Of a stretch of DNA of 48,580 nucleotides, positions 769 through 9,818 are shown in pieces. Position 1 is the first letter of the stretch; every line of letters begins with the position of its first letter. A program made the translations under genes and the position numbers. Source of the stretch: Chitinophagales bacterium. GTDB lineage: Bacteria > Bacteroidota > Bacteroidia > Chitinophagales > JADJOU01. The stretch is taken from assembly GCA_030832185.1 (NCBI GenBank), contig JAURJQ010000006.1, positions 1 to 48,580 of the forward strand. Reading direction: 5' to 3'. Below the pieces are notes generated by a model. The model was not told where the DNA came from and ran no database searches. It saw only the letters and a list, made by a program, of their open reading frames with translations.

Positions 769-1134
769 TTAAGTATTTGGATTCAGGGTTTTGTTGATTT
801 TATTAATCTCTAAAATGATTTCGTCTAATAGTTTAATTGCGTTTGTCACTTCAGTTTCATTAAAATAGTTCACTTTTAGTCCGTAAAGCAACTGACTTTT
901 TGTTTCGAAAGCTGATCCACGTGCATAAATGTAAAATTTCATCTTGTCTCGCCCTCCGTTTCTCCCAAATCCTTCTGCAATATTCGAAGATATACTTACT
1001 GAGGCTCTTCTTAGTTGTGAGGTTAGTCCGTAATCTTCTTTTCTTGGCAAATTTTCTGTGATTTGAAAGACCTTGTCCGCAGCGTCAATGGCTTTGTTCC
1101 AAATTGGCATCTCGGTGAAGTCTTTGTATTTCAT
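769..1134 (-). CDS. Four-helix-bundle protein, 23S rRNA-intervening-sequence (S23/TIGR02436) family
   Basis: A 121-residue, nearly all-helical protein. The landmarks of the family are visible: an N-terminal W-x-K-A-I/D-x-A stretch (residues 11-20), the central block LRRASVSISSNIAEG (about 42-56), and the G-x-x-K-F-Y-I-YARGSAFE block that follows. This family was first noticed inside 23S rRNA intervening sequences and is structurally related to the Avd accessory protein of diversity-generating retroelements; its function in isolated form is not known. No reverse transcriptase or template repeat is seen here. Both ends of the gene touch G-rich heptamer arrays: the start codon is one base or so from array 2 and the stop TAA lies at the edge of array 1. 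Confidence 0.85.
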   Translation of the reverse strand: MKYKDFTEMPIWNKAIDAADKVFQITENLPRKEDYGLTSQLRRASVSISSNIAEGFGRNGGRDKMKFYIYARGSAFETKSQLLYGLKVNYFNETEVTNAIKLLDEIILEINKINKTLNPNT

Positions 1135-1231
1135 TTTGAGGGGTGAGGGTTGAGGGTTGAGAGTGAGGGTTGAGGGTTGAGAGTGAGGGTTGAGGGTTGA
1201 GGTTGAGGGTTCAGAGTGAGGGTTGAGGGTT
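1135..1231. repeat. G-rich heptamer array 2 (GGGTTGA-like)
   Basis: The array fills the gap between the four-helix-bundle gene and the RhuM-like gene. Units are GAGGGTT with GAGAGT and GAGGTT variants. The left-hand edges of arrays 1 and 2 are alike: each ends GAGGGTTGAGGGTTAAGTATT, in which the complement of TTA supplies the stop codon of the gene to the right. Confidence 0.85.
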
Positions 1232-2063
1232 AAGTATTCAGTTTATTTACTATCAGTTGTGGCTCGATAGATAGTTTTGAAAAGGCAAACCATTTTTTTC
1301 CTAAGTCTTTCAACGATGCCCCAATGTGATAAATATCCAAATCATCAATTATTAGGAATCGATCGTGAGCTTTACCGAAAGAGATCACTTCAATGGGTTC
1401 ATATTGCTGATTAAATTTCTGAAGATCCAATTCTAATTGCTTGCTTATTTTTTGTGTGTATATCTGAGCCTTTACACCTCTTTTTCTTTTTGATAAGATT
1501 AGTAATACATCTTCGTTCACGTAATTATCAATCAAGACAAGTGAATGATTTGCTTTGCGAACAATACCCGAAACAAAATGAAATGCATCAAATATTTGTC
1601 CATCAAAGAAAATACCTTCCTTGGGAGGAAGCGTTGTTTGAATTAGCGTTTCCAGTAATTGACCTTGTTTTACTACTTGCTTTTCGATTTTTTCCACTCT
1701 TTGCTGAATGGCATAGCCTTTAAGCAGGTAATCGCGGAGTACCTTTGTTGCCCAAATTCTAAATTGAGTGCCACGCTTAGATTTTATTCTGTATCCCACG
1801 GAAATAATAACATCGAGATTGTAGTAGGCAGTATTGTATTTTTTTCCATCTACAGCAGTTGTCAAGGAATACTTGACTGCTGAAGTTTTTTCTAATTCCT
1901 TCTCTTTGAAAATATTATTGATGTGCAAACTGATATTTTGCTTAGTCGAGTTGAATAGTTCCAGCATCTGCGCTTGCGTCAGCCATACAGACTCATCTTC
2001 CACTCTTACTTCAATAAAAAAGTCTGATTGGCTATCTGGCAGGTAAGGAATAAGCTCGTGCAT
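1230..2063 (-). CDS. RhuM-family (virulence RhuM-like) protein with degenerate PLD-like C-terminus
   Basis: The protein has 277 residues. The N-terminal two fifths carry the RhuM-type pattern: VWLTQAQMLELF near residue 27, a predicted helix-turn-helix with QNISLHINNIF, then YNLDVIISVGYRIKSKRGTQFR and an RIWATKVLRDYL helix. A coiled-coil-like segment (about 120-140) follows. The C-terminus (about 150-277) resembles a phospholipase-D fold: AHDRFLIIDD then YHIGASLKDLGKKWFAF, with HDR in place of the catalytic HxK, so activity is doubtful. RhuM genes occur in pathogenicity islands and mobile regions and their biochemical role is not settled. The gene is bracketed by heptamer arrays 2 and 3, as expected for a transferred cassette. 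Confidence 0.8.
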   Translation of the reverse strand: MHELIPYLPDSQSDFFIEVRVEDESVWLTQAQMLELFNSTKQNISLHINNIFKEKELEKTSAVKYSLTTAVDGKKYNTAYYNLDVIISVGYRIKSKRGTQFRIWATKVLRDYLLKGYAIQQRVEKIEKQVVKQGQLLETLIQTTLPPKEGIFFDGQIFDAFHFVSGIVRKANHSLVLIDNYVNEDVLLILSKRKRGVKAQIYTQKISKQLELDLQKFNQQYEPIEVISFGKAHDRFLIIDDLDIYHIGASLKDLGKKWFAFSKLSIEPQLIVNKLNT

Positions 2064-2187
2064 AGGTGGGGTGAGACTGAGAGGTGAGGGTTGAGGTTGA
2101 GGTTGAGACTGAGGGTTGAGGGTTGAGACTGAGGGTTGAGGGTTGAGACTGAGGGTTGAGAGTGAGGGTTGAGGGTTGAGACCTTCT
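2064..2187. repeat. G-rich heptamer array 3 (GGGTTGA-like)
   Basis: This array separates the RhuM-like gene from the AlbA_2 gene. Units are mostly GAGGGTT alternating with GAGACT. It starts within a few bases of the RhuM-like ATG and leaves no space for an ordinary leader. Confidence 0.85.
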
Positions 2188-2213
2188 TAGACCTAAAGCT
2201 TAAGCCTTCATTC

Positions 2214-3572
2214 TTAATTTTTTACAACTTTCCAATAACCGTTTCTTGTGTTACCTATCCTTACCAAAAGCCCCATTTCTTTGATTTTTTTGATGTTATT
2301 TCTAATGTTTTTTTCGTTTATACCAATTGTTTCAGCTAATTCATGTTGGGTAATCTTATTGTTTTTTTGAATTTCCTTCAAAATGGAGATTTGATTAGTC
2401 GACAAAAAGTCTTTATTTAGGTCTTTATTTAGGTCTTTATTTAGGTCTCTATCTAGGTCTTTAAGCAAAGTGACTTGTACGCCGCCAGCATAATTTTCAA
2501 ATATGGGTTCAGGCAGTTTTGCATTCCTGAATTCTGTTACTATTTTATGGATTCCTCTGCCCCATGATTCTATGTATCCTGCCTTGAAGAAAATATCAGC
2601 GATTAATCTATTCTTGGGAATAGAAGGATGCTTTTCCTTGAGTCTATCTATATTGATTTTACTAGGTAGGCTACCCGGATTCCAAAGTATAATTTTATTT
2701 TCATAAACACTTAATTGAATATGGACGCCAGTATAGTCTCTGTGAATAATAGCATTAAGTATGGCTTCTCTCAGCGCCTCTTCAGGATACTCCAATTCCT
2801 CTATGCGCTTTATGCCTTCATAGCGGATAGGCATAGTCAGATATTTTGATTTCAATATTTCCATCACCTTTTCAGGCATTTCAAAAATATTTCCCTCGAT
2901 GACATCGTGAAATTTCAAGTCATGATGATTGTTTCCAAATTTACCTATTCTAAAGCTCACTGAACTAAAATAATGTGGAGTGTTTTTTCCGAAAAGAAGT
3001 AAAGCTGCGTTTTTTAAATTACTATTCTCACCTATTAATTTCAAATTGAACAAAACAGTCTGTAATTCATCTTCTTCTACATCCACAGACAATCTATTAA
3101 TTTTGATTGCCATCTTGATGAATTTTCTAACTGACAAAGCATCTATGTCATTAATTGTAGCTGATTCTATAGGGAGTTCGTCATAACTTTTACCCAATTT
3201 TTTGAGTATAAAATGTTGTAAATCGTTGCCGCTTAATTCCTGAACCGTACTGCCACTTCTAATGTAATAGCGACCTTTGAATGCGATAGGGCTGGGACTT
3301 GGATTTACGAAAATGGCCAGATAATATTTATTGCCTTCTTTATTGACATCTATAGCTATAGTGACACCTAAAAATTGAATAGCTTTATTCAGTATATCTT
3401 CTAAGAGTTTTTTGGAATTTTCTATCCCTACAATAGTACCTTTATCATCAACCCCTACAAACAATGTGCCTCCTTTGGAGTTTGAAAATGCGCATATATG
3501 TTTGAGAAAATCATCTTTCCAGATAGATTTAAACTCTACATTTTGATTTTCCAAAGTTTGTGATAATTTCAC
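2214..3572 (-). CDS. AlbA_2 (Schlafen-like) / HATPase_c_4 / winged-helix protein
   Basis: A 452-residue protein of the group often annotated as a putative DNA-binding or RecG-like transcriptional regulator. The N-terminal AlbA_2 domain (about 10-125) shows NVEFKSIWKDD and FSNSKGGTLFVGVDDKG. A GHKL-type ATPase-like domain (about 240-370) shows EALREAILNAIIHRDY and a GRGIHKI loop. A winged helix (about 395-450) ends GYWKVVKN. Between the last two lies an Asp-Leu-Asn-Lys tetrapeptide repeat encoded by a 12-bp tandem repeat. It resembles the gene at 4587-5942 in layout but is clearly diverged. It sits between the exporter permease and the RhuM-like gene. Proposed roles of the family (regulation or defence) are not proven. 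Confidence 0.82.
   Translation of the reverse strand: MKLSQTLENQNVEFKSIWKDDFLKHICAFSNSKGGTLFVGVDDKGTIVGIENSKKLLEDILNKAIQFLGVTIAIDVNKEGNKYYLAIFVNPSPSPIAFKGRYYIRSGSTVQELSGNDLQHFILKKLGKSYDELPIESATINDIDALSVRKFIKMAIKINRLSVDVEEDELQTVLFNLKLIGENSNLKNAALLLFGKNTPHYFSSVSFRIGKFGNNHHDLKFHDVIEGNIFEMPEKVMEILKSKYLTMPIRYEGIKRIEELEYPEEALREAILNAIIHRDYTGVHIQLSVYENKIILWNPGSLPSKINIDRLKEKHPSIPKNRLIADIFFKAGYIESWGRGIHKIVTEFRNAKLPEPIFENYAGGVQVTLLKDLDRDLNKDLNKDLNKDFLSTNQISILKEIQKNNKITQHELAETIGINEKNIRNNIKKIKEMGLLVRIGNTRNGYWKVVKN
2409..2463. repeat. 12-bp intragenic tandem repeat (DLNK linker)
   Basis: Three identical copies of GTCTTTATTTAG, one variant copy (GTCTCTATCTAG) and a 7-base partial copy lie in tandem. They encode the DLNK-type linker between the ATPase-like domain and the winged helix. 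Gain or loss of a unit would keep the frame and change only linker length. Confidence 0.9.
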
Positions 3573-3610: not shown

Positions 3611-4492
3611 CTACACCGTATCTATAAATGTTTTTTCTGTTTTATTAAATATCAATAATCCAAGTGTGAATACAACCAATGATGAAATGAGCGAATATCC
3701 AAGCATGGCAAAATCTATATTTCCACCCAACAAACTATTTCTAAAAATTTCTATGACTGGGGATAAAGGATTATAGGCTATCCAAGTGTAGAACTTCGTA
3801 TCTCTAATCGTCTCCAGTGAATAAATCACAGGCGTGGCGTACATCAGTAGCTGCACGCCGAAGGTGATGAGGAAAATTAAATCTTTGTACTTTGCCGTCA
3901 TCGACGTGACGATCATACCGAGCCCCATGCCCAGATTGAATAATATTAAAATCAAAAATGGCAATAAGAATATAGTCCACGAAATAGAGAATTCAAACTG
4001 CCCTGTGACCACCATATAAATATAAATAGCGAAAAATAATCCGAGTTGTATTAGGAGTTTGAGCAGGTTGGATATAGCTTTAGCAGCAGGGGCTATAATT
4101 CGCGGGAAATAAACCTTGCCGAAGAGTTGTGCATTTTCTCTAAATGTAGCAGCGGTATTGTTCAAGACATCGGCGAAATAATTCCACAATACCACCCCTG
4201 ATAGATAAAATAATATTTGCGGTTTGCCATCCGTCGAAAGTTTGGCTATCTGTCCAAATACAATCATATAGACTATCGTAGTGAGTAAAGGCTGAATAAA
4301 AAACCAAAGCGGACCGAGAATCGTCTGCTTATAGAATTGTACAATTTCTCGCTTGACAAACATGCGCAGGAGGTCGCGAAATTTCCATATCTCCTTTAAA
4401 TCTATCTGAAACAAGGAAGACCGGGGTTCTATGACAAGATCCCAATAGTCATCGCTGTATTCTTTTTTTACTTCTACCTCTTCACTTCCCAT
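3611..4492 (-). CDS. Polysaccharide ABC exporter permease (Wzm/TagG type, ABC2_membrane)
   Basis: Inner-membrane subunit of the ABC-2 exporter. It has 293 residues with six hydrophobic spans and the family motif YKQTILGPLWFFIQPL (about 55-70) ahead of the first span. The C-terminal ETIRDTKFYTWIAYNPLSPVIEIFRNSLLGG is the usual amphipathic/NP-x-P block. Its ATPase partner is the gene at 1-651. The ATG used here lies inside a fragment of the antiterminator's 3' end, read in another frame, so the first few residues (MGSEEVEV) are encoded by that fragment. This suggests that the permease once followed the antiterminator directly with a short overlap. Confidence 0.92.
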   Translation of the reverse strand: MGSEEVEVKKEYSDDYWDLVIEPRSSLFQIDLKEIWKFRDLLRMFVKREIVQFYKQTILGPLWFFIQPLLTTIVYMIVFGQIAKLSTDGKPQILFYLSGVVLWNYFADVLNNTAATFRENAQLFGKVYFPRIIAPAAKAISNLLKLLIQLGLFFAIYIYMVVTGQFEFSISWTIFLLPFLILILFNLGMGLGMIVTSMTAKYKDLIFLITFGVQLLMYATPVIYSLETIRDTKFYTWIAYNPLSPVIEIFRNSLLGGNIDFAMLGYSLISSLVVFTLGLLIFNKTEKTFIDTV

Positions 4493-4563
4493 ATAAATCC
4501 TAATTCTTCTTTTATCAGCTTAATTGTGTCTTTATTGATTTTTGCTACTGCCACTAGAAGTAC
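4474..4563 (-). pseudogene. 3'-end fragment of the NusG/UpxY-like gene (copy B)
   Basis: Read on the minus strand this gives V-A-K-I-N-K-D-T-I-K-L-I-K then EELGFIWEVKR and a TAG stop. The intact antiterminator gene at 9266 ends with VELNKNTIKLV then IEDLGFVWEVKR and a stop. Only the last 30 or so codons (KOW-like part) are present. The fragment overlaps the first codons of the permease in another frame. Confidence 0.8.
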
Positions 4564-4586
4564 TTCTACAGTGTTTAGAGTTTGTC

Positions 4587-5942
4587 TTATCTGACAACTT
4601 CCCAATGACCGCCTTTGGAGGGACCGACTCGTTTAATAAATCCCATTATTTTTAAATTTTCTAAATCTCGTTGCGCTGTTCTCTCTGTGATTTCTAACAA
4701 TTCTGAAATTTGTTTTGCGGATATTTTTTTATCTCTTAATATTAGCTTGAGTATCTCTTGCGACCTTTTTTCTACGACATTTTCTACGACATTTTCTACG
4801 ACATTTTCTACGACATATGTATTCACCGCAGCATAGACTGTCACTAGAAATCCTTCTCCTTGCAGCTTAAACTCTGGCAAAGGCAAGTTTTCTTCTTTGA
4901 AATAGTTGATGATACGACCGATTCCTGAGCCATATTTTTCTATCCAGCCTAAGTTTTTAAAAAACTCAGCAATCGCTTTGTTTCGAGGGGTAGATTTATA
5001 GTTATTCTCCTTGAGATCTTGAATGCTTATGTTTTCTGGCAACCTTCCCGGATTGTAAAATTCAATTTTGTCATTAAATACTTTGACCACAGAGTCTGAA
5101 CTTGAACGATAGTCTCTATGAATAATCATATTCAATACGATTTCGCGAATCGCTTCCAATGGATACTGCCACTTCTGCACATTTTCAGCATCTCCAGTGA
5201 TGATGAGAGCCAGGTTAATATGCTTTTTGACAAAATCCAGGACTTGATCTACCTGCGTAATCAAATCCGACTGTGTACGAGCTGTATCTTTGATTGTAAT
5301 ATTATCTTGAAACCTTCCCAGCTCTATAGTTGTAGCTATAGAATGTCTTTTTTTGAACATTAAAAATGCCGCATTCGTTGGCCTTTCTTCCCGTATTAAA
5401 TCATTTTTTACTAAAAAGGATATCGGCGGCTCCGCTATCGTTTTGCCTCGACTCTTCATACTCTCCATACAATGCTGCACCAACTCTAGAGATAAATCCT
5501 CTACACTATGAATAGGGTCAGGGTAGCTATCCCAGCTGGAATTAAGAGATTGTAAATGTAGATTGGCTACCTCAGAAGCTGTTAAAACATGGTTTGAATT
5601 AGCCACTCGCTTAAAATACCTCCCTTTAAAACTGACTGGCTTTATAGGGTATTCATGAATTTTCATAACCACGATTGTCTTGTCATCTTTTTCTACAATG
5701 TCCACATCGGGAATAAGTACAGGTGTCGTTTTATTCTTGATTTCATTAATCCATTCAGAAACCGTTTCCCTTCCCATACGCAATCCCAGAATATCTCCAT
5801 TGTCCGCGACACCTATATAAACTGAGCCTCCATGAGCATTGGCAAAGGCTACTAAAGTTTCTATAGTTTCATTGCCAAAGCTAGCCTTGAACTCTACTAT
5901 CTGACTCTCGCCTAATTCTATAATAGATTGATGACTCATCAT
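4587..5942 (-). CDS. AlbA_2 (Schlafen-like) / HATPase_c_4 / winged-helix protein, second copy
   Basis: A 451-residue protein with the same architecture as the gene at 2214-3572. AlbA_2 (about 8-125) shows QIVEFKASFGN and FANAHGGSVYIGVADNGDILG. The GHKL-like part (about 235-355) shows EAIREIVLNMIIHRDYRS and YGSGIGRI. The C-terminal winged helix (about 392-450) ends GGHWEVVR. The linker before the winged helix is a Val-Val-Glu-Asn repeat from a perfect 12-bp tandem repeat. The start codon falls inside a repeat that also follows the intact antiterminator gene, so the gene seems to have been joined precisely behind an antiterminator 3' end. Function unknown; regulation or defence are guesses from the family. 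Confidence 0.82.
   Translation of the reverse strand: MMSHQSIIELGESQIVEFKASFGNETIETLVAFANAHGGSVYIGVADNGDILGLRMGRETVSEWINEIKNKTTPVLIPDVDIVEKDDKTIVVMKIHEYPIKPVSFKGRYFKRVANSNHVLTASEVANLHLQSLNSSWDSYPDPIHSVEDLSLELVQHCMESMKSRGKTIAEPPISFLVKNDLIREERPTNAAFLMFKKRHSIATTIELGRFQDNITIKDTARTQSDLITQVDQVLDFVKKHINLALIITGDAENVQKWQYPLEAIREIVLNMIIHRDYRSSSDSVVKVFNDKIEFYNPGRLPENISIQDLKENNYKSTPRNKAIAEFFKNLGWIEKYGSGIGRIINYFKEENLPLPEFKLQGEGFLVTVYAAVNTYVVENVVENVVENVVEKRSQEILKLILRDKKISAKQISELLEITERTAQRDLENLKIMGFIKRVGPSKGGHWEVVR
4769..4816. repeat. 12-bp intragenic tandem repeat (VVEN linker)
   Basis: Four perfect copies of TTTCTACGACAT encode VVEN four times, at the same place in the protein (between ATPase-like domain and winged helix) where the paralogue at 2214 carries an unrelated DLNK repeat. 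Confidence 0.95.
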
Positions 5943-5966
5943 CCTAAATGCTCGTTAAATCTAATC

Positions 5967-6043
5967 TCACCTTTTCATTTCCTATAAAAATCCTAAATCC
6001 TCTATGACCAGTTTTATCGTTTTTTTATTGAGTTTTACTACTC
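5967..6043 (-). pseudogene. 3'-end fragment of the NusG/UpxY-like gene (copy C)
   Basis: The minus strand reads V-V-K-L-N-K-K-T-I-K-L-V-I-E-D-L-G-F-L, then a TAG where the intact gene has Trp, then E-M-K-R and TGA. The similarity continues downstream past the stop to about 5930, so the whole duplicated block is about 110 bp and matches 9230-9340 at roughly 88% by hand count, without gaps. The internal stop shows that it is not functional as a gene end. Confidence 0.85.
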
Positions 6044-6096
6044 TTTACTGAATCCAATCCCAAACATTTATTTATTTTATTCACTATGCTCTTTTC

Positions 6097-7239
6097 TTAA
6101 TCCTCCCTATTCAAAAAATCTTGCAAAGAATAAACCATTATATTGTTTTTAAGAGGGTAGGCCATAGCTACCTGGGCTATGATATATACATTCGTAGGTT
6201 TTACATCCTCTATTGCGTTCCAGAACCCTATACTTAGTTTTGGAACAGAAGTTGCTTTTATCTCTATGGCTATAATATGTTGACCTTTTACAAGTATTAG
6301 ATCCAATTCATTTCCATTAGATGTGCGATAAAAATATGGACTGTAATCTTTATATTTATTTGTTATATTTTCTATGACCATGGTCTCCCATGAAAAACCA
6401 TAGGCAGGATGACTATATAAATTGTTGAAATCAACTATCCCCAATAGATTATGTAATATTCCAATATCACGAATATAGAGTTTGGGCGATTTTTGTACCC
6501 GTTTCTTTGCATTGCTATGATATGGTGCCAATCTTCGTATCATAAATGTATGCTCTAAAATATCGATATAGCTTTTAACTGTAGGGGCGCTTACTCCTAG
6601 TGATTGAGCTAATTGTTCATAATTTAATAGCTGACCATTGAGATGAGCAAGCATAGTCCACAGTCTTTTTAGATTTTCTGGAGGTATATTATAACCAAAT
6701 TGTCGGACATCCCGCTCTAAAAATGTTTTTATATAGTTCCTGAGCCATTCAGTCGAAAAATCATTATCATTTAAAAGACTTCTAGGATATCCCCCTCTGA
6801 ACCAATAATCATTGAACTCTATTTTGTCCTGAATTTCTGTCCATAAAAAAGGGGTTAGTTCATAATAAAATATTCGACCCGCCAGCGATTCGGCACTTTG
6901 TCTCAATAATTCTGGAGAGGAAGACCCTAGAATTAAAAACTTAGTACTGGGATATTGATCTACAAATCCTCTTATTTCTTTAAAAATATTGGGAGAAAAC
7001 TGAACTTCATCAAGACATATAAGCTTATTTTTATTTAATTCAAAAAAGGTATTGGCATCACTAAGAACATTCCTATCTTTTTCTAATTCTAGGTCTAGAT
7101 AGACGCTTTGAGGGTAGTTAGATATAATGTGCTTCGATAAAGTAGATTTCCCTACTTGCCTTGGACCTAATATAGCTGTCACTGGCAGTCTATCAAATTG
7201 CAAAGCAATATTATCCGCTAATTTTCTTTTTATAATCAC
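6097..7239 (-). CDS. AAA+ ATPase with DUF4143 domain (AAA_14 family)
   Basis: A 380-residue P-loop ATPase. Walker A GPRQVGKST lies near residues 25-33, Walker B LICLDEVQ near 72-79, and a sensor-like FLILGSSSPELL follows. The C-terminal DUF4143 part has a winged-helix-like segment (SLGVSAPTVKSYIDIL) and then a PD-(D/E)xK-like core: NELDLILVKG, then AIEIKAT. Members are widespread in bacteria and archaea, often in accessory regions. Their substrate is unknown; a nuclease-like end suggests a DNA-related or defence role, which is inference. It lies between antiterminator fragments C and D, forming one cassette. Confidence 0.85.
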   Translation of the reverse strand: MIIKRKLADNIALQFDRLPVTAILGPRQVGKSTLSKHIISNYPQSVYLDLELEKDRNVLSDANTFFELNKNKLICLDEVQFSPNIFKEIRGFVDQYPSTKFLILGSSSPELLRQSAESLAGRIFYYELTPFLWTEIQDKIEFNDYWFRGGYPRSLLNDNDFSTEWLRNYIKTFLERDVRQFGYNIPPENLKRLWTMLAHLNGQLLNYEQLAQSLGVSAPTVKSYIDILEHTFMIRRLAPYHSNAKKRVQKSPKLYIRDIGILHNLLGIVDFNNLYSHPAYGFSWETMVIENITNKYKDYSPYFYRTSNGNELDLILVKGQHIIAIEIKATSVPKLSIGFWNAIEDVKPTNVYIIAQVAMAYPLKNNIMVYSLQDFLNRED

Positions 7240-7344
7240 TATGCAAATAAAGCTATTTTTATGTAAATATAAATTCTTATTTTAGTTTTACATAATTAAT
7301 TCTTTTTTCTATTGCTCTTTTCACACTTTCTATTAGCAAACTTC

Positions 7345-7380
7345 CTATCTCTTCACTTCCAATATAAATTCTAAATATTT
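7345..7380 (-). pseudogene. Short 3'-end fragment of the NusG/UpxY-like gene (copy D)
   Basis: The minus strand reads K-Y-L-E-F-I-L-E-V-K-R then TAG, matching the E-D-L-G-F-V-W-E-V-K-R end of the intact gene. Weaker DNA similarity goes on to about 7395. This is the most decayed of the three broken copies. Confidence 0.65.
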
Positions 7381-7401
7381 TATAATTAGATTAAAGCTAA
7401 A

Positions 7402-7566
7402 TTAATTTTCTACTACGATCCAGTAACCCCATTTGGCAGAACCAATGCGCTGCACTATACCTAAATGTTTCAACTTACTGATATTTTCTAGAATTTTTCT
7501 CTTGGAGATTTCAATTTTTTCAGCCAACTGGTAAACAAATTATCGATCGACCAATTCATTTTTCAT
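7402..7566 (-). pseudogene. Remnant of an AlbA_2-type gene: C-terminal winged helix only
   Basis: The minus-strand frame reads KNELVDR, an in-frame TAA at 7540-7542, then QLAEKIEISKRKILENISK, a LKHLGIVQRIGSAKWGYW segment and VVEN before TAA at 7402-7404. This matches the winged-helix ends of the two AlbA_2 genes (for example RNNIKKIKEMGLLVRIG and GYWKVVKN). The rest of the gene is missing, so a third AlbA_2 gene stood here and was lost. A 34-codon open frame just upstream (7572-7676) is not recognised. Confidence 0.75.
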
Positions 7567-7695
7567 TCCACTTATCTAAAAAAAGTCCTAGTCAGGGCAT
7601 TGGGTACTCCATGTGCGTCGATATCTACGAAAAAGGGGTGCGCTAGATGGCTAGGAATGATGTGGAAGATGTTCATTATTTTATTTGTTGTTTTT

Positions 7696-8910
7696 TTAAA
7701 ACGATTCAGCTAAAAGGAAATCTTTTATGTGCATATGCTTTACTCCATATAGGTTTTCATTCCAGAAATCATCCATGGTTACAACATATTTAGGGTATTG
7801 ATCTTTGATAGTTGATAGTGTATAAAACTCTCTATTTTCAGTTTCTTTACTTTCTATTTTATAAGCAACTTGTAGGTATATTTTTTCATCATTTCTTTCT
7901 GCGATAAAGTCAATTTCTTTTTGATCTATTTTGCCTACATATACGCGATACTCTCTCCTTTTAAGCTCTAAAAACACTATATTTTCCAGTAGCTGAGCTA
8001 TCATACTAGTCTTAAAGCCCATAGTAGCATATAATAGCGATACATCACTCAAGTAATGTTTTTCTTGTGTTTTCAATACTTCCTTTCCTCTGATATCATA
8101 GCGAGGTACTTTATAAAGGATAAATGCGCCTTCCAAAGCGTTCAAATAATTATATACTGTATTAATATCTATTTTACGTTGTTGACTTTTAAAATAATCC
8201 GCTACATTTTTACCTGAAAAGGTATTGCCTATATTGTCAAATGCATATTTTATGATGCGCTCTAGCAATTCTGTGTCTCTAATTTTATATCGCTGCAAGG
8301 TATCGCGCAGTATTACCGAAGAATAAATATCATAAACAATTTTATATGCAGATTCTAAAGTATAATCTGAAATATGAACAACAGGAAATCCGCCCATTTT
8401 TAGATATTCTTGAAATTGCTTTGTCGTATTTTTTTCTTCGTTAAAGTAGTACTTTCTAAAATTGATAAATTCTGCAAATGAAAGTGTAAATACCGGAATT
8501 TCTATATATCTACCTGCTATATGAGTGGCTAATTCGGAAGACAGCAGGTGAGAATTAGAACCAGTAATGTATATATCTACATTAAAATCAACGAACAATG
8601 CATTAACTGCTTTTTCCCATTCCTTTACTTCTTGAATTTCATCTAATAAAAGATAGTGTTTTTTGGTATTCTTAATGTTGCTTTTTATGAAATCGTATAG
8701 TTCTTTTGCATTTGTAAGATGTGCATAATTGAAACTCTCTAAGTTGACATCAATTATTTGAGAAATTTCTATGTCCTTATTTAAAATTTCTTTTTTAAAT
8801 AATTTTAACATAGTTGATTTGCCAGACCTTCTGATACCAGTGAGCACTTTTATCAATGGCTTATCAATAAAGGCTTTTAATTCGTTTATGTATCTTTCCC
8901 TAATTATCAT
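7696..8910 (-). CDS. AAA+ ATPase with DUF4143 domain, second copy
   Basis: A 404-residue P-loop ATPase of the same broad family as 6097-7239 but not a recent duplicate. Walker A GIRRSGKST lies at about residues 25-33 and Walker B YLLLDEIQEVKEW near 90. YITGSNSHLLSSELATHIAGR forms the sensor region. The C-terminal part keeps a PD-(D/E)xK-like pattern, KEIDFIAERN and then YLQVAYK, with Val-Ala in place of the usual E-x-K, so nuclease chemistry may be lost. It is the first gene after the intact antiterminator and forms the outermost cassette together with the AlbA_2 remnant. Confidence 0.85.
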   Translation of the reverse strand: MIIRERYINELKAFIDKPLIKVLTGIRRSGKSTMLKLFKKEILNKDIEISQIIDVNLESFNYAHLTNAKELYDFIKSNIKNTKKHYLLLDEIQEVKEWEKAVNALFVDFNVDIYITGSNSHLLSSELATHIAGRYIEIPVFTLSFAEFINFRKYYFNEEKNTTKQFQEYLKMGGFPVVHISDYTLESAYKIVYDIYSSVILRDTLQRYKIRDTELLERIIKYAFDNIGNTFSGKNVADYFKSQQRKIDINTVYNYLNALEGAFILYKVPRYDIRGKEVLKTQEKHYLSDVSLLYATMGFKTSMIAQLLENIVFLELKRREYRVYVGKIDQKEIDFIAERNDEKIYLQVAYKIESKETENREFYTLSTIKDQYPKYVVTMDDFWNENLYGVKHMHIKDFLLAESF

Positions 8911-9265
8911 TTTTTCTGCTTATAACCACAAATATAATAATTTATTGTCATAAAATATGCTTAAAACCATAAAAAATAAAATAACTTTTCATATTCTAAT
9001 GTGTATAGGCGGAAATACTTGAATTTTAAATACCGTTATACTCATTGATTAATTCATGAAATGAAGATAGATGAAGCTTCGATTTCCATCATTCGCGTTG
9101 GTAATTACGCCATCTCTATAATGCCACTCATAGGCTGCTGACTATTTGCTCTTCTATCTGGCCAAGGGTCTGCTATGAATGGAGCTATATATTGTTCTAC
9201 TAAATATAGCCGTCTAATTTTCCAATTTTATGACTCATAATCCTTAACGCTTGTTAAATCTAATC
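8911..9265. other. Non-coding stretch downstream of the antiterminator
   Basis: No intact gene. Bases 9230-9265 are the non-coding part of the duplicated block shared with 5931-5966. A minus-strand frame around 9090-9200 (with YIAPFIADPWPDRRAN) is closed by stops and has no start, so it looks like a decayed coding fragment of unknown origin. Confidence 0.5.
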
Positions 9266-9739
9266 TCACCTTTTCACTTCCCATACAAATCCTAAATCTT
9301 CTATGACCAGTTTAATTGTATTTTTATTGAGTTCGACTACTGTAGCTTGTTTGCCTTGAAATACATAGTTGGTCAAATGCAGAGTATCGCCTAACTTCAA
9401 ATTATCCCATTCACTTTCTTCGAACACTTTTTGACTGAGATAATCCTGAATCTGATCGAGTTCGGCCTTTTTTATGACGGCTAGTTTACCCGTCGTGGAG
9501 CTATGGACATAGTTCAAAACGCCATCTGTACGGAGTATATCTGGATTCTTGGAGCCTTCGGCAGCTACGAAGATATAAGATTTCAAGAGTGGTTCTTCTA
9601 CTTTTTTCCATCGGTCGCTGTATTGTTTTTTGACAACACATAGCGGCAGATAAACTTCGTATCCCTTCTGTGAAAGGCGTTCTGCCACTTTTTTCTCCGT
9701 TCGCGGTTTGAGGTAGAGAGCATTCCAGTTTTCTGTCAT
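9266..9739 (-). CDS. UpxY-type NusG-like transcription antiterminator
   Basis: A NusG paralogue of the kind that heads capsule and O-antigen loci in Bacteroidota, where it lets RNA polymerase read through the long operon. The NGN domain is clear: NWNALYLKPRTEKKVAERL, then YEVYLPL, KPLLKSYIF-like EEPLLKSYIFVAA and VLNYVHSS. A KOW-like C-terminus follows (LGDTLHLTNYVFQGKQATVVEL). I chose the ATG at 9739 (157 residues), because it follows an A-rich leader and begins MTENWNALY; the upstream ATG at 9778 would add 13 residues. It is transcribed toward the exporter genes. Its own 3' end is repeated three times downstream. Confidence 0.88.
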   Translation of the reverse strand: MTENWNALYLKPRTEKKVAERLSQKGYEVYLPLCVVKKQYSDRWKKVEEPLLKSYIFVAAEGSKNPDILRTDGVLNYVHSSTTGKLAVIKKAELDQIQDYLSQKVFEESEWDNLKLGDTLHLTNYVFQGKQATVVELNKNTIKLVIEDLGFVWEVKR

Positions 9740-9818
9740 TCTTGTTTTAATTTCTATATATGCAGAGCTCCGCCACATGAGTCCCAGATCTAGACATGCA
9801 CCACATAAGAATTACACG

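What the first reader, a model, noticed from the sequence alone, without database searches (positions are those of the whole stretch)
4474..9345. The 3' end of a NusG/UpxY antiterminator gene repeated at four cassette joints
Minus-strand order is: intact antiterminator, AAA/DUF4143 gene plus AlbA_2 remnant, fragment D, AAA/DUF4143 gene, fragment C, AlbA_2 gene, fragment B, exporter permease. Fragments B, C and D each end with a version of the antiterminator's last residues (GFIWEVKR, GFL-stop-EMKR, EFILEVKR). Fragment C matches 9230-9340 at about 88% over about 110 bp by hand count. This is what repeated insertion at a gene's 3' end would leave, with each cargo bringing or duplicating the end of the target. 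Integrative elements are known to target gene 3' ends, mostly tRNA genes, but no integrase is visible here. It may be an undescribed insertion hotspot that loads accessory or defence cargo behind a capsule antiterminator, so that cargo is also exposed to antitermination.
Basis: partly seen in the sequence, partly recalled or inferred. Interest (0 to 1): 0.8.

Follow-up and report, generated by a model that had tools for sequence, protein, structure and literature searches.

The report
Single-gene inserts duplicating their target's end
In this Bacteroidota genome, lone genes (two of them candidate phage-defence genes) have been inserted one after another at the seam between two capsule-operon genes, each flanked by a copy of the end of the upstream gene, and the same defence-gene family shows duplicated flanks in many relatives, which suggests that these single genes move in this way.

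Summary
The last 46-75 bp of the UpxY-type antiterminator (9266-9778, minus strand) recur at 5928-6042, 7340-7394 and 4476-4550. A second (G003) has one AlbA_2 gene between two tail copies.

There is repeated insertion with duplication of the target's end, and no integrase. But it is not a hotspot behind antiterminators: none of 59 similar loci in the order repeats the tail. The generality lies in the cargo. Both AAA/DUF4143 genes match PDC-S01, a candidate single-gene defence family (ATPase plus PD-(D/E)XK nuclease). Across the order, 26 of 71 such genes are flanked by direct repeats, against 2 of 367 control ORFs and 0 of 209 swapped flanks. Several repeats are the duplicated end of a neighbouring gene (mnmE, smc, a T9SS protein, asnB); others are palindromes. 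The first AAA gene here is flanked by a circularly permuted glycosyltransferase fragment, as a circular intermediate would leave.

Best explanation: single-gene insertion with long target duplication, known for restriction-modification genes, here for PDC-S01 and probably AlbA_2. How the movement happens is inferred.

The parts
9266..9778 (-). UpxY-type NusG-like antiterminator, intact (target gene)
   Evidence: NCBIfam NF033644 antiterm_UpxY 100.7 bits against cut-off 100; Pfam NusG E=8e-14
9227..9342 (-). copy A: 3' end of the intact antiterminator plus left junction (37-bp spacer, ATGAGTCAT start)
9053..9211 (-). fragment of a capsule glycosyltransferase gene, nt 638-797 (downstream half), lying upstream of AAA gene 1
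   Evidence: tblastn 60-76% identity, E=3e-14; blastn E=5e-7
7696..8910 (-). AAA_14/DUF4143 gene 1 (cargo), PDC-S01 candidate defence ATPase-nuclease
   Evidence: Pfam; PADLOC PDC-S01 E=6e-156
7509..7648 (-). fragment of the same glycosyltransferase, nt 491-630 (upstream half), lying downstream of AAA gene 1: permuted order, contiguous break at 630|638
   Evidence: blastn 76%, E=1e-21; tblastn E=2e-13
7402..7525 (-). remnant of the C-terminal winged-helix end of an AlbA_2 gene
   Evidence: translation ...LAEKIEISKRKILENISKLKHLGIVQRIGSAKWGYWIVVEN*; upstream limit approximate
7340..7394 (-). copy D of the antiterminator tail (46-55 bp); its junction with the AlbA_2 stop resembles the right junction in G003
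   Evidence: E about 1e-7 to B, 4e-9 over 68 bp to G003 L027:11398-11465
6097..7239 (-). AAA_14/DUF4143 gene 2 (cargo), PDC-S01
   Evidence: Pfam; PADLOC PDC-S01 E=7e-81; AlphaFold2 mean pLDDT 95.7
5928..6042 (-). copy C of tail plus spacer plus AlbA_2 start; contains an in-frame stop (GFL*EMKR)
4587..5942 (-). AlbA_2/HATPase_c_4/wHTH gene (cargo), 62% identical to the single cargo gene of G003
   Evidence: Pfam
4476..4550 (-). copy B: complete open antiterminator 3' end that overlaps the permease start
   Evidence: reads VAKINKDTIKLIKEELGFIWEVKR*
3611..4492 (-). polysaccharide-export ABC permease (Wzm-like); start codon inside copy B
   Evidence: Pfam ABC2_membrane; 88% identical to the empty-site genome G001

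Best explanation
The locus is a stack of single-gene insertions at one seam. In the ancestral state the antiterminator's last codons overlapped the permease start (as in G001, shown). An AlbA_2 gene entered at that seam and left a copy of the antiterminator's 3' end on each side (as in G003, shown). Further cargo then entered: another AlbA_2 copy, AAA/DUF4143 gene 2 between two tail copies, and AAA/DUF4143 gene 1, which destroyed the first AlbA_2 gene. So three joints now carry tail copies D, C and B (layout shown; order of events inferred). The process is best described as insertion with long target duplication, tens to a few hundred bp, without transposase or integrase. It seems a property of AAA/DUF4143 (PDC-S01) genes in general, since many are flanked by direct repeats, some of them a duplicated gene end (shown statistically). 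A likely route, inferred from the permuted glycosyltransferase fragment around AAA gene 1, is a circle of gene plus one copy of its duplicated target, formed by recombination between the flanking copies and reinserted elsewhere. Whether the encoded ATPase-nuclease drives this by cutting DNA is untested.
For: Tail copies are far above chance and occur nowhere else in the genome. Empty site in G001 with a 19-bp overlap; single AlbA_2 cargo between two tail copies in G003. AAA gene 1 is flanked by glycosyltransferase nt 638-797 on one side and nt 491-630 on the other, with a contiguous break. AAA/DUF4143 genes of the order: 26 of 71 (one of them the window's AAA gene 1) have direct repeats between their 700-bp flanks; 0 of 209 with flanks swapped between loci; 2 of 367 control ORFs, Fisher p about 1e-20. 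Repeats that are the duplicated end of a neighbour: mnmE 3' 53 bp (L242), smc 3' 66 bp (L061), T9SS protein 3' about 100 bp (L236), a 281-aa ORF's 3' about 317 bp (L199), asnB 5' 38 bp (L072, this genome). For smc and the T9SS protein the gene is convergent with the insert and the far copy serves neither gene, so there the duplication is not explained by a need to keep two overlapping genes intact. No recombinase family among the window proteins scanned.
Against: For AlbA_2 the case rests on one locus family: AlbA_2 genes elsewhere (L139-L141, L143-L145) show no long flanking repeats. Copies A and B differ at 13 of 72 positions, so either the duplication is old or one end came from another allele by recombination. 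The order of events in the window cannot be fixed: B and D-type right junctions differ. Some repeats in the 26 are palindromes borne by the insert (about 8) or dispersed repeats (L171, L175), not target duplications. AAA genes on viral contigs rarely show repeats (2 of 27). All genomes of the genus are draft assemblies.
Confidence: 0.6

Rival explanations
1. Cassette acquisition by homologous recombination. Capsule loci of other strains already carried 'gene plus antiterminator end' blocks, and general recombination between conserved antiterminator ends brought them in; the repeats are recombination anchors, not products of insertion.
For: Gene relationships are mosaic: the window is closest to G001/G002 at the DUF386 gene but to G003 at the antiterminator and permease. 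A and B differ like two alleles. C copies a whole left junction, not just the tail.
Against: Does not explain how the first block with two tail copies arose, nor the same pattern at smc, mnmE, asnB and T9SS genes outside capsule antiterminators.
Confidence: 0.22
2. An integrative element whose tyrosine recombinase targets gene 3' ends inserted here and at mnmE/smc; the integrase genes were lost and only att-like duplications and cargo remain.
For: Gene 3' ends, mnmE among them, are classical integration sites (established knowledge, not tested here); in L242 both copies read as a complete MnmE end.
Against: No integrase at the window locus; inserts are single genes of 1.1-1.4 kb; targets also include a gene 5' end (asnB) and gene interiors (glycosyltransferase, L228).
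Confidence: 0.08
3. Selection filter. Insertions of all kinds happen, but at an overlapping gene pair only those that duplicate the overlap keep both genes alive, so the duplication is an ascertainment effect of the seam.
For: The antiterminator and permease overlap in the empty state. At the neighbouring permease/ATPase seam, which does not overlap in G003, the cargo genes IVP, RhuM and AlbA_2 have no tail duplication.
Against: Copies are longer (46-75 bp) than the 19-bp overlap needs; non-overlapping or convergent targets show duplications too.
Confidence: 0.1

Closest known systems
Insertion of restriction-modification genes with long and variable target duplication (Nobusato et al. 2000, as cited in PMC3031569)
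   Same: Single gene or small complex inserted; long direct duplication of the target; no transposase or integrase; seen by comparing related genomes
   Different: Here the cargo is PDC-S01 (AAA_14/DUF4143) and AlbA_2, not restriction-modification; targets are often gene ends; a permuted flank points to a circular intermediate; some PDC-S01 genes carry palindromes at both sides
PDC-S01 candidate defence genes (PADLOC; discussed in PMC12988326)
   Same: AAA genes 1 and 2 match PDC-S01 models strongly; ATPase fused to a PD-(D/E)XK-like domain
   Different: Treated in the paper read as a widespread single-gene candidate; I found no description of flanking duplications, but only one held paper contains the word DUF4143
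Genomic islands integrated at gene 3' ends by tyrosine recombinases
   Same: 3' end of the target gene duplicated, reading frame restored
   Different: No recombinase; one gene per insert; also 5' ends and gene interiors
UpxY-controlled capsule operons of Bacteroidota
   Same: Antiterminator gene directly upstream of polysaccharide-export genes
   Different: Single-gene cargo between antiterminator and permease with tail copies; not seen in 59 other antiterminator loci of the order

Membership tests
Insertion with long target duplication (Nobusato/Kobayashi) | long direct duplication of target sequence flanking the inserted gene | tested here: met
   46-75 bp tail copies; G003 single insert
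Insertion with long target duplication (Nobusato/Kobayashi) | empty site in a related genome | tested here: met
   G001, antiterminator overlaps permease
Insertion with long target duplication (Nobusato/Kobayashi) | no transposase, integrase or IS at the insert | tested here: met
   Pfam scans of window proteins
Insertion with long target duplication (Nobusato/Kobayashi) | cargo is a restriction-modification gene complex | tested here: not met
   cargo is AAA_14/DUF4143 and AlbA_2; so it works like that process but is not the described kind of cargo
PDC-S01 | match to the PADLOC PDC-S01 models | tested here: met
   E=6e-156 and 7e-81
PDC-S01 | ATPase domain fused to a PD-(D/E)XK domain | tested here: inconclusive
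   AAA part matches archaeal AAA ATPases 2qen and 2fna; invariant E311 and nearly invariant D313, E326, K328 fit the motif, but the C-terminal domain was not searched alone; the fusion is stated in PMC12988326
PDC-S01 | anti-phage activity | not testable with these tools
   needs experiment
UpxY antiterminator | NCBIfam NF033644 score over cut-off | tested here: met
   100.7 against 100
UpxY antiterminator | antitermination of the downstream operon | not testable with these tools
   no expression data
Integrase-driven genomic island at gene 3' ends | site-specific recombinase gene in the element | tested here: not met
   none among the window proteins scanned
Tandem duplication of the antiterminator with decay | full-length antiterminator copies or their 5' remnants at the joints | tested here: not met
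   copies start about 72 nt before the stop; middle and 5' parts find no strong downstream match

The most novel reading that the evidence does not exclude
PDC-S01 (AAA_14/DUF4143) genes are self-moving single-gene elements: the encoded ATPase-nuclease promotes its own insertion at gene ends with long target duplication, through a circular intermediate, and a subset carries a specific palindrome at both ends as its recognition site. A candidate defence family reported as the fourth most common in prokaryotes would then be a class of minimal mobile element.
Probability: 0.2. Interest if true: 0.85.

Novelty: new variant of a known kind. Interest (0 to 1): 0.6.

Why it matters
How solitary defence genes move without transposases or integrases is an open question. 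If AAA/DUF4143 genes insert with long target duplications, that gives a route for their scatter, a signature for finding insertion sites, and a prediction (excised circles of gene plus one repeat) that PCR can test. It also shows how accessory genes can enter a tightly overlapping operon without breaking it: the duplicated end keeps both neighbours intact.

Tried and rejected
General hotspot behind UpxY antiterminators: a tail search downstream of 59 antiterminators in the order found none beyond background (the L120 match is short and weak). Simple tandem duplication of the antiterminator: no upstream parts at the joints. Antiterminator relatives in genome contigs: the first scan found none; a permease scan returned the G001 and G005 records and four distant loci. 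Duplication as a general trait of AlbA_2 genes: distant AlbA_2 loci show no long flanking repeats apart from short tandem arrays in L142. Repeats in L171 and L175 were inspected and set aside as dispersed non-coding repeats; L063 is the tail of a second DUF4143 gene. A palindrome search (GGACAAAT..ATTTGTCC) found none in the three genomes of this genus that were searched (G000, G001, G003), so the palindromic class is not the one in the window. My first script on AAA1 relatives returned nothing because its motif filter was too strict; redone. No fold match was reported for the C-terminal part, which that search barely tests.

Full report
Observation. The antiterminator (9266-9778, minus strand) is a UpxY-family NusG paralogue. 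Its last 75 bp or so recur three more times in the next 5 kb of the same strand: D at 7340-7394, C at 5928-6042 and B at 4476-4550. Identities are 78-88% and E-values 1e-5 to 1e-37; the genome holds no other significant copy. C is the most extended: besides the tail it shares with A the 37-bp spacer and the first bases of the AlbA_2 gene. B is a complete, open antiterminator end that runs into the permease start codon. C has an in-frame stop.

Comparison with relatives. In G001 (same genus) the antiterminator stop lies 19 bp inside the permease gene, with nothing between them. In G003 one AlbA_2 gene sits between the two, with a complete tail on its left and a roughly 46-bp tail copy on its right that leads into the permease. 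The right junction in G003 resembles copy D in spacing and sequence, including the AlbA_2 stop, so the first AlbA_2 insertion of the window is probably the same event as that in G003. G002 has only a decayed antiterminator.

A fragment that tells about transport. Between the antiterminator and AAA gene 1 lies the downstream half of a capsule glycosyltransferase segment (nt 638-797 of the G003 gene), and between AAA gene 1 and the AlbA_2 remnant lies the upstream half (nt 491-630). The break is contiguous. That order, downstream half, gene, upstream half, is what a circle of gene plus one glycosyltransferase segment leaves when it opens inside that segment. Such a circle is what recombination between two flanking target copies would release. 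This is inference from anatomy; no circle was seen. The alternative, two full flanking copies each trimmed back to the same point, needs a coincidence.

Is it the antiterminator or the cargo? I fetched 60 antiterminator loci from the same order (59 with downstream sequence) and searched up to 13 kb downstream for the antiterminator's last 110 bp. None repeats it, apart from weak, short matches at the level of the control segments; the window and G003 are the exceptions. I then asked the same of the cargo. Flanks of AAA/DUF4143 genes in the five nearest genomes showed several direct repeats, and a wider sample gave 14 of 35 against 1 of 55 control ORFs. With duplicates removed, 26 of 71 AAA/DUF4143 genes have direct repeats at E<1e-4 between their 700-bp flanks; swapping flanks between loci gives 0 of 209, and 367 control ORFs of similar size give 2. 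One of those two, L258, looks from its N-terminus like a Fic-type gene, which was not checked further.

What the repeats are. In one class the repeat is the end of a neighbouring gene: the mnmE 3' end in L242, with both copies reading to FCIGK-stop; the smc 3' end in L061; a T9SS-sorting protein 3' end in L236; a 281-aa ORF in L199; the asnB 5' end in L072, which lies in this same genome. The gene names mnmE, smc, asnB and T9SS are my reading of the translated ends and were not run through a family search. In a second class (L204, L205, L208, L211, L213, L214, L215, L227) the repeat is a 33-46 bp palindrome on each side of the gene. In G122 the exact pattern GGACAAAT..ATTTGTCC occurs only at the two sides of the AAA gene; in G105 there is one further site, between two metabolic genes. 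Exact-match searching misses sites with a changed base, so uniqueness is not established. L171 and L175 are dispersed repeats and should be discounted; removing them leaves 24 of 71.

The cargo. Both AAA genes match PADLOC's PDC-S01. PMC12988326 describes PDC-S01 as the fourth most common defence candidate in prokaryotes, an ATPase fused to a PD-(D/E)XK domain, with validation pending for most such candidates. An AlphaFold2 model of AAA gene 2 has mean pLDDT 95.7, and its N-terminal part matches archaeal AAA ATPases and STAND/AVAST proteins. Columns E311, D313, E326 and K328 are invariant or nearly so, as a nuclease motif would be; the C-terminal domain alone was not tested against known folds. 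The closest AlbA_2 relatives outside the genus (L139-L142) also lie in polysaccharide-export regions, but they lack long flanking repeats apart from the tandem arrays in L142.

Mechanism. I favour single-gene insertion with long target duplication, the process proposed for restriction-modification genes (Nobusato 2000, as cited in PMC3031569). Shown: the copies, the empty and single-cargo states, the association with AAA/DUF4143 genes. Inferred: the order of events, the circular intermediate, any role of the nuclease. Homologous recombination among capsule loci has probably also shaped the region, because the closest relative changes from gene to gene.

Limits. The genomes of this genus are drafts, the window ends at a contig edge, and only one genus carries this seam with cargo. 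AlbA_2 insertion with duplication rests on one locus family. No expression data bear on the idea that cargo is exposed to antitermination. The literature search covered open-licence papers only, so an earlier description of these flanks may exist elsewhere.

Noticed in passing
657-775, 1137-1238, 2068-2181: Arrays of GAGGGTT-type heptamers flank the IVP and RhuM genes between permease and ATPase; L142 in another family has IVP-RhuM-AlbA_2 before the ATPase, with short arrays at either end of the set.
   Followed up: partly
769-3572: IVP, RhuM (PADLOC PDC-S05) and a further AlbA_2 gene sit at the permease/ATPase seam, all in operon direction; G001 has an IVP gene just after the permease.
   Followed up: partly
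L204, L205, L208, L211, L213, L214, L215, L227: 33-46 bp palindromes immediately on both sides of AAA/DUF4143 genes, several sharing the arms GGACAAAT..ATTTGTCC; in some the upstream copy lies close to a possible promoter.
   Followed up: partly
L063, L066: Repeated motif around AATTCGGCGTAAA upstream of AAA/DUF4143 genes, possibly an operator.
   Followed up: no
G000:C24:3268-8091 (L063, L072, L076): A second cluster of AAA/DUF4143 genes and a DUF4143 fragment beside asnB in the same genome.
   Followed up: partly
L028:8256-8855: In G001 a Uma2-like gene lies between the DUF4286 and DUF386 genes, which are 10 bp apart in the window.
   Followed up: no
L258:16847-17918: One of the two control genes flanked by a direct repeat (87 bp, 100%) looks like a Fic-type gene from its N-terminus.
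   Followed up: no
L030:1934-2161: G002 has a decayed antiterminator and no permease after it, so the capsule cluster may be lost or moved there.
   Followed up: no
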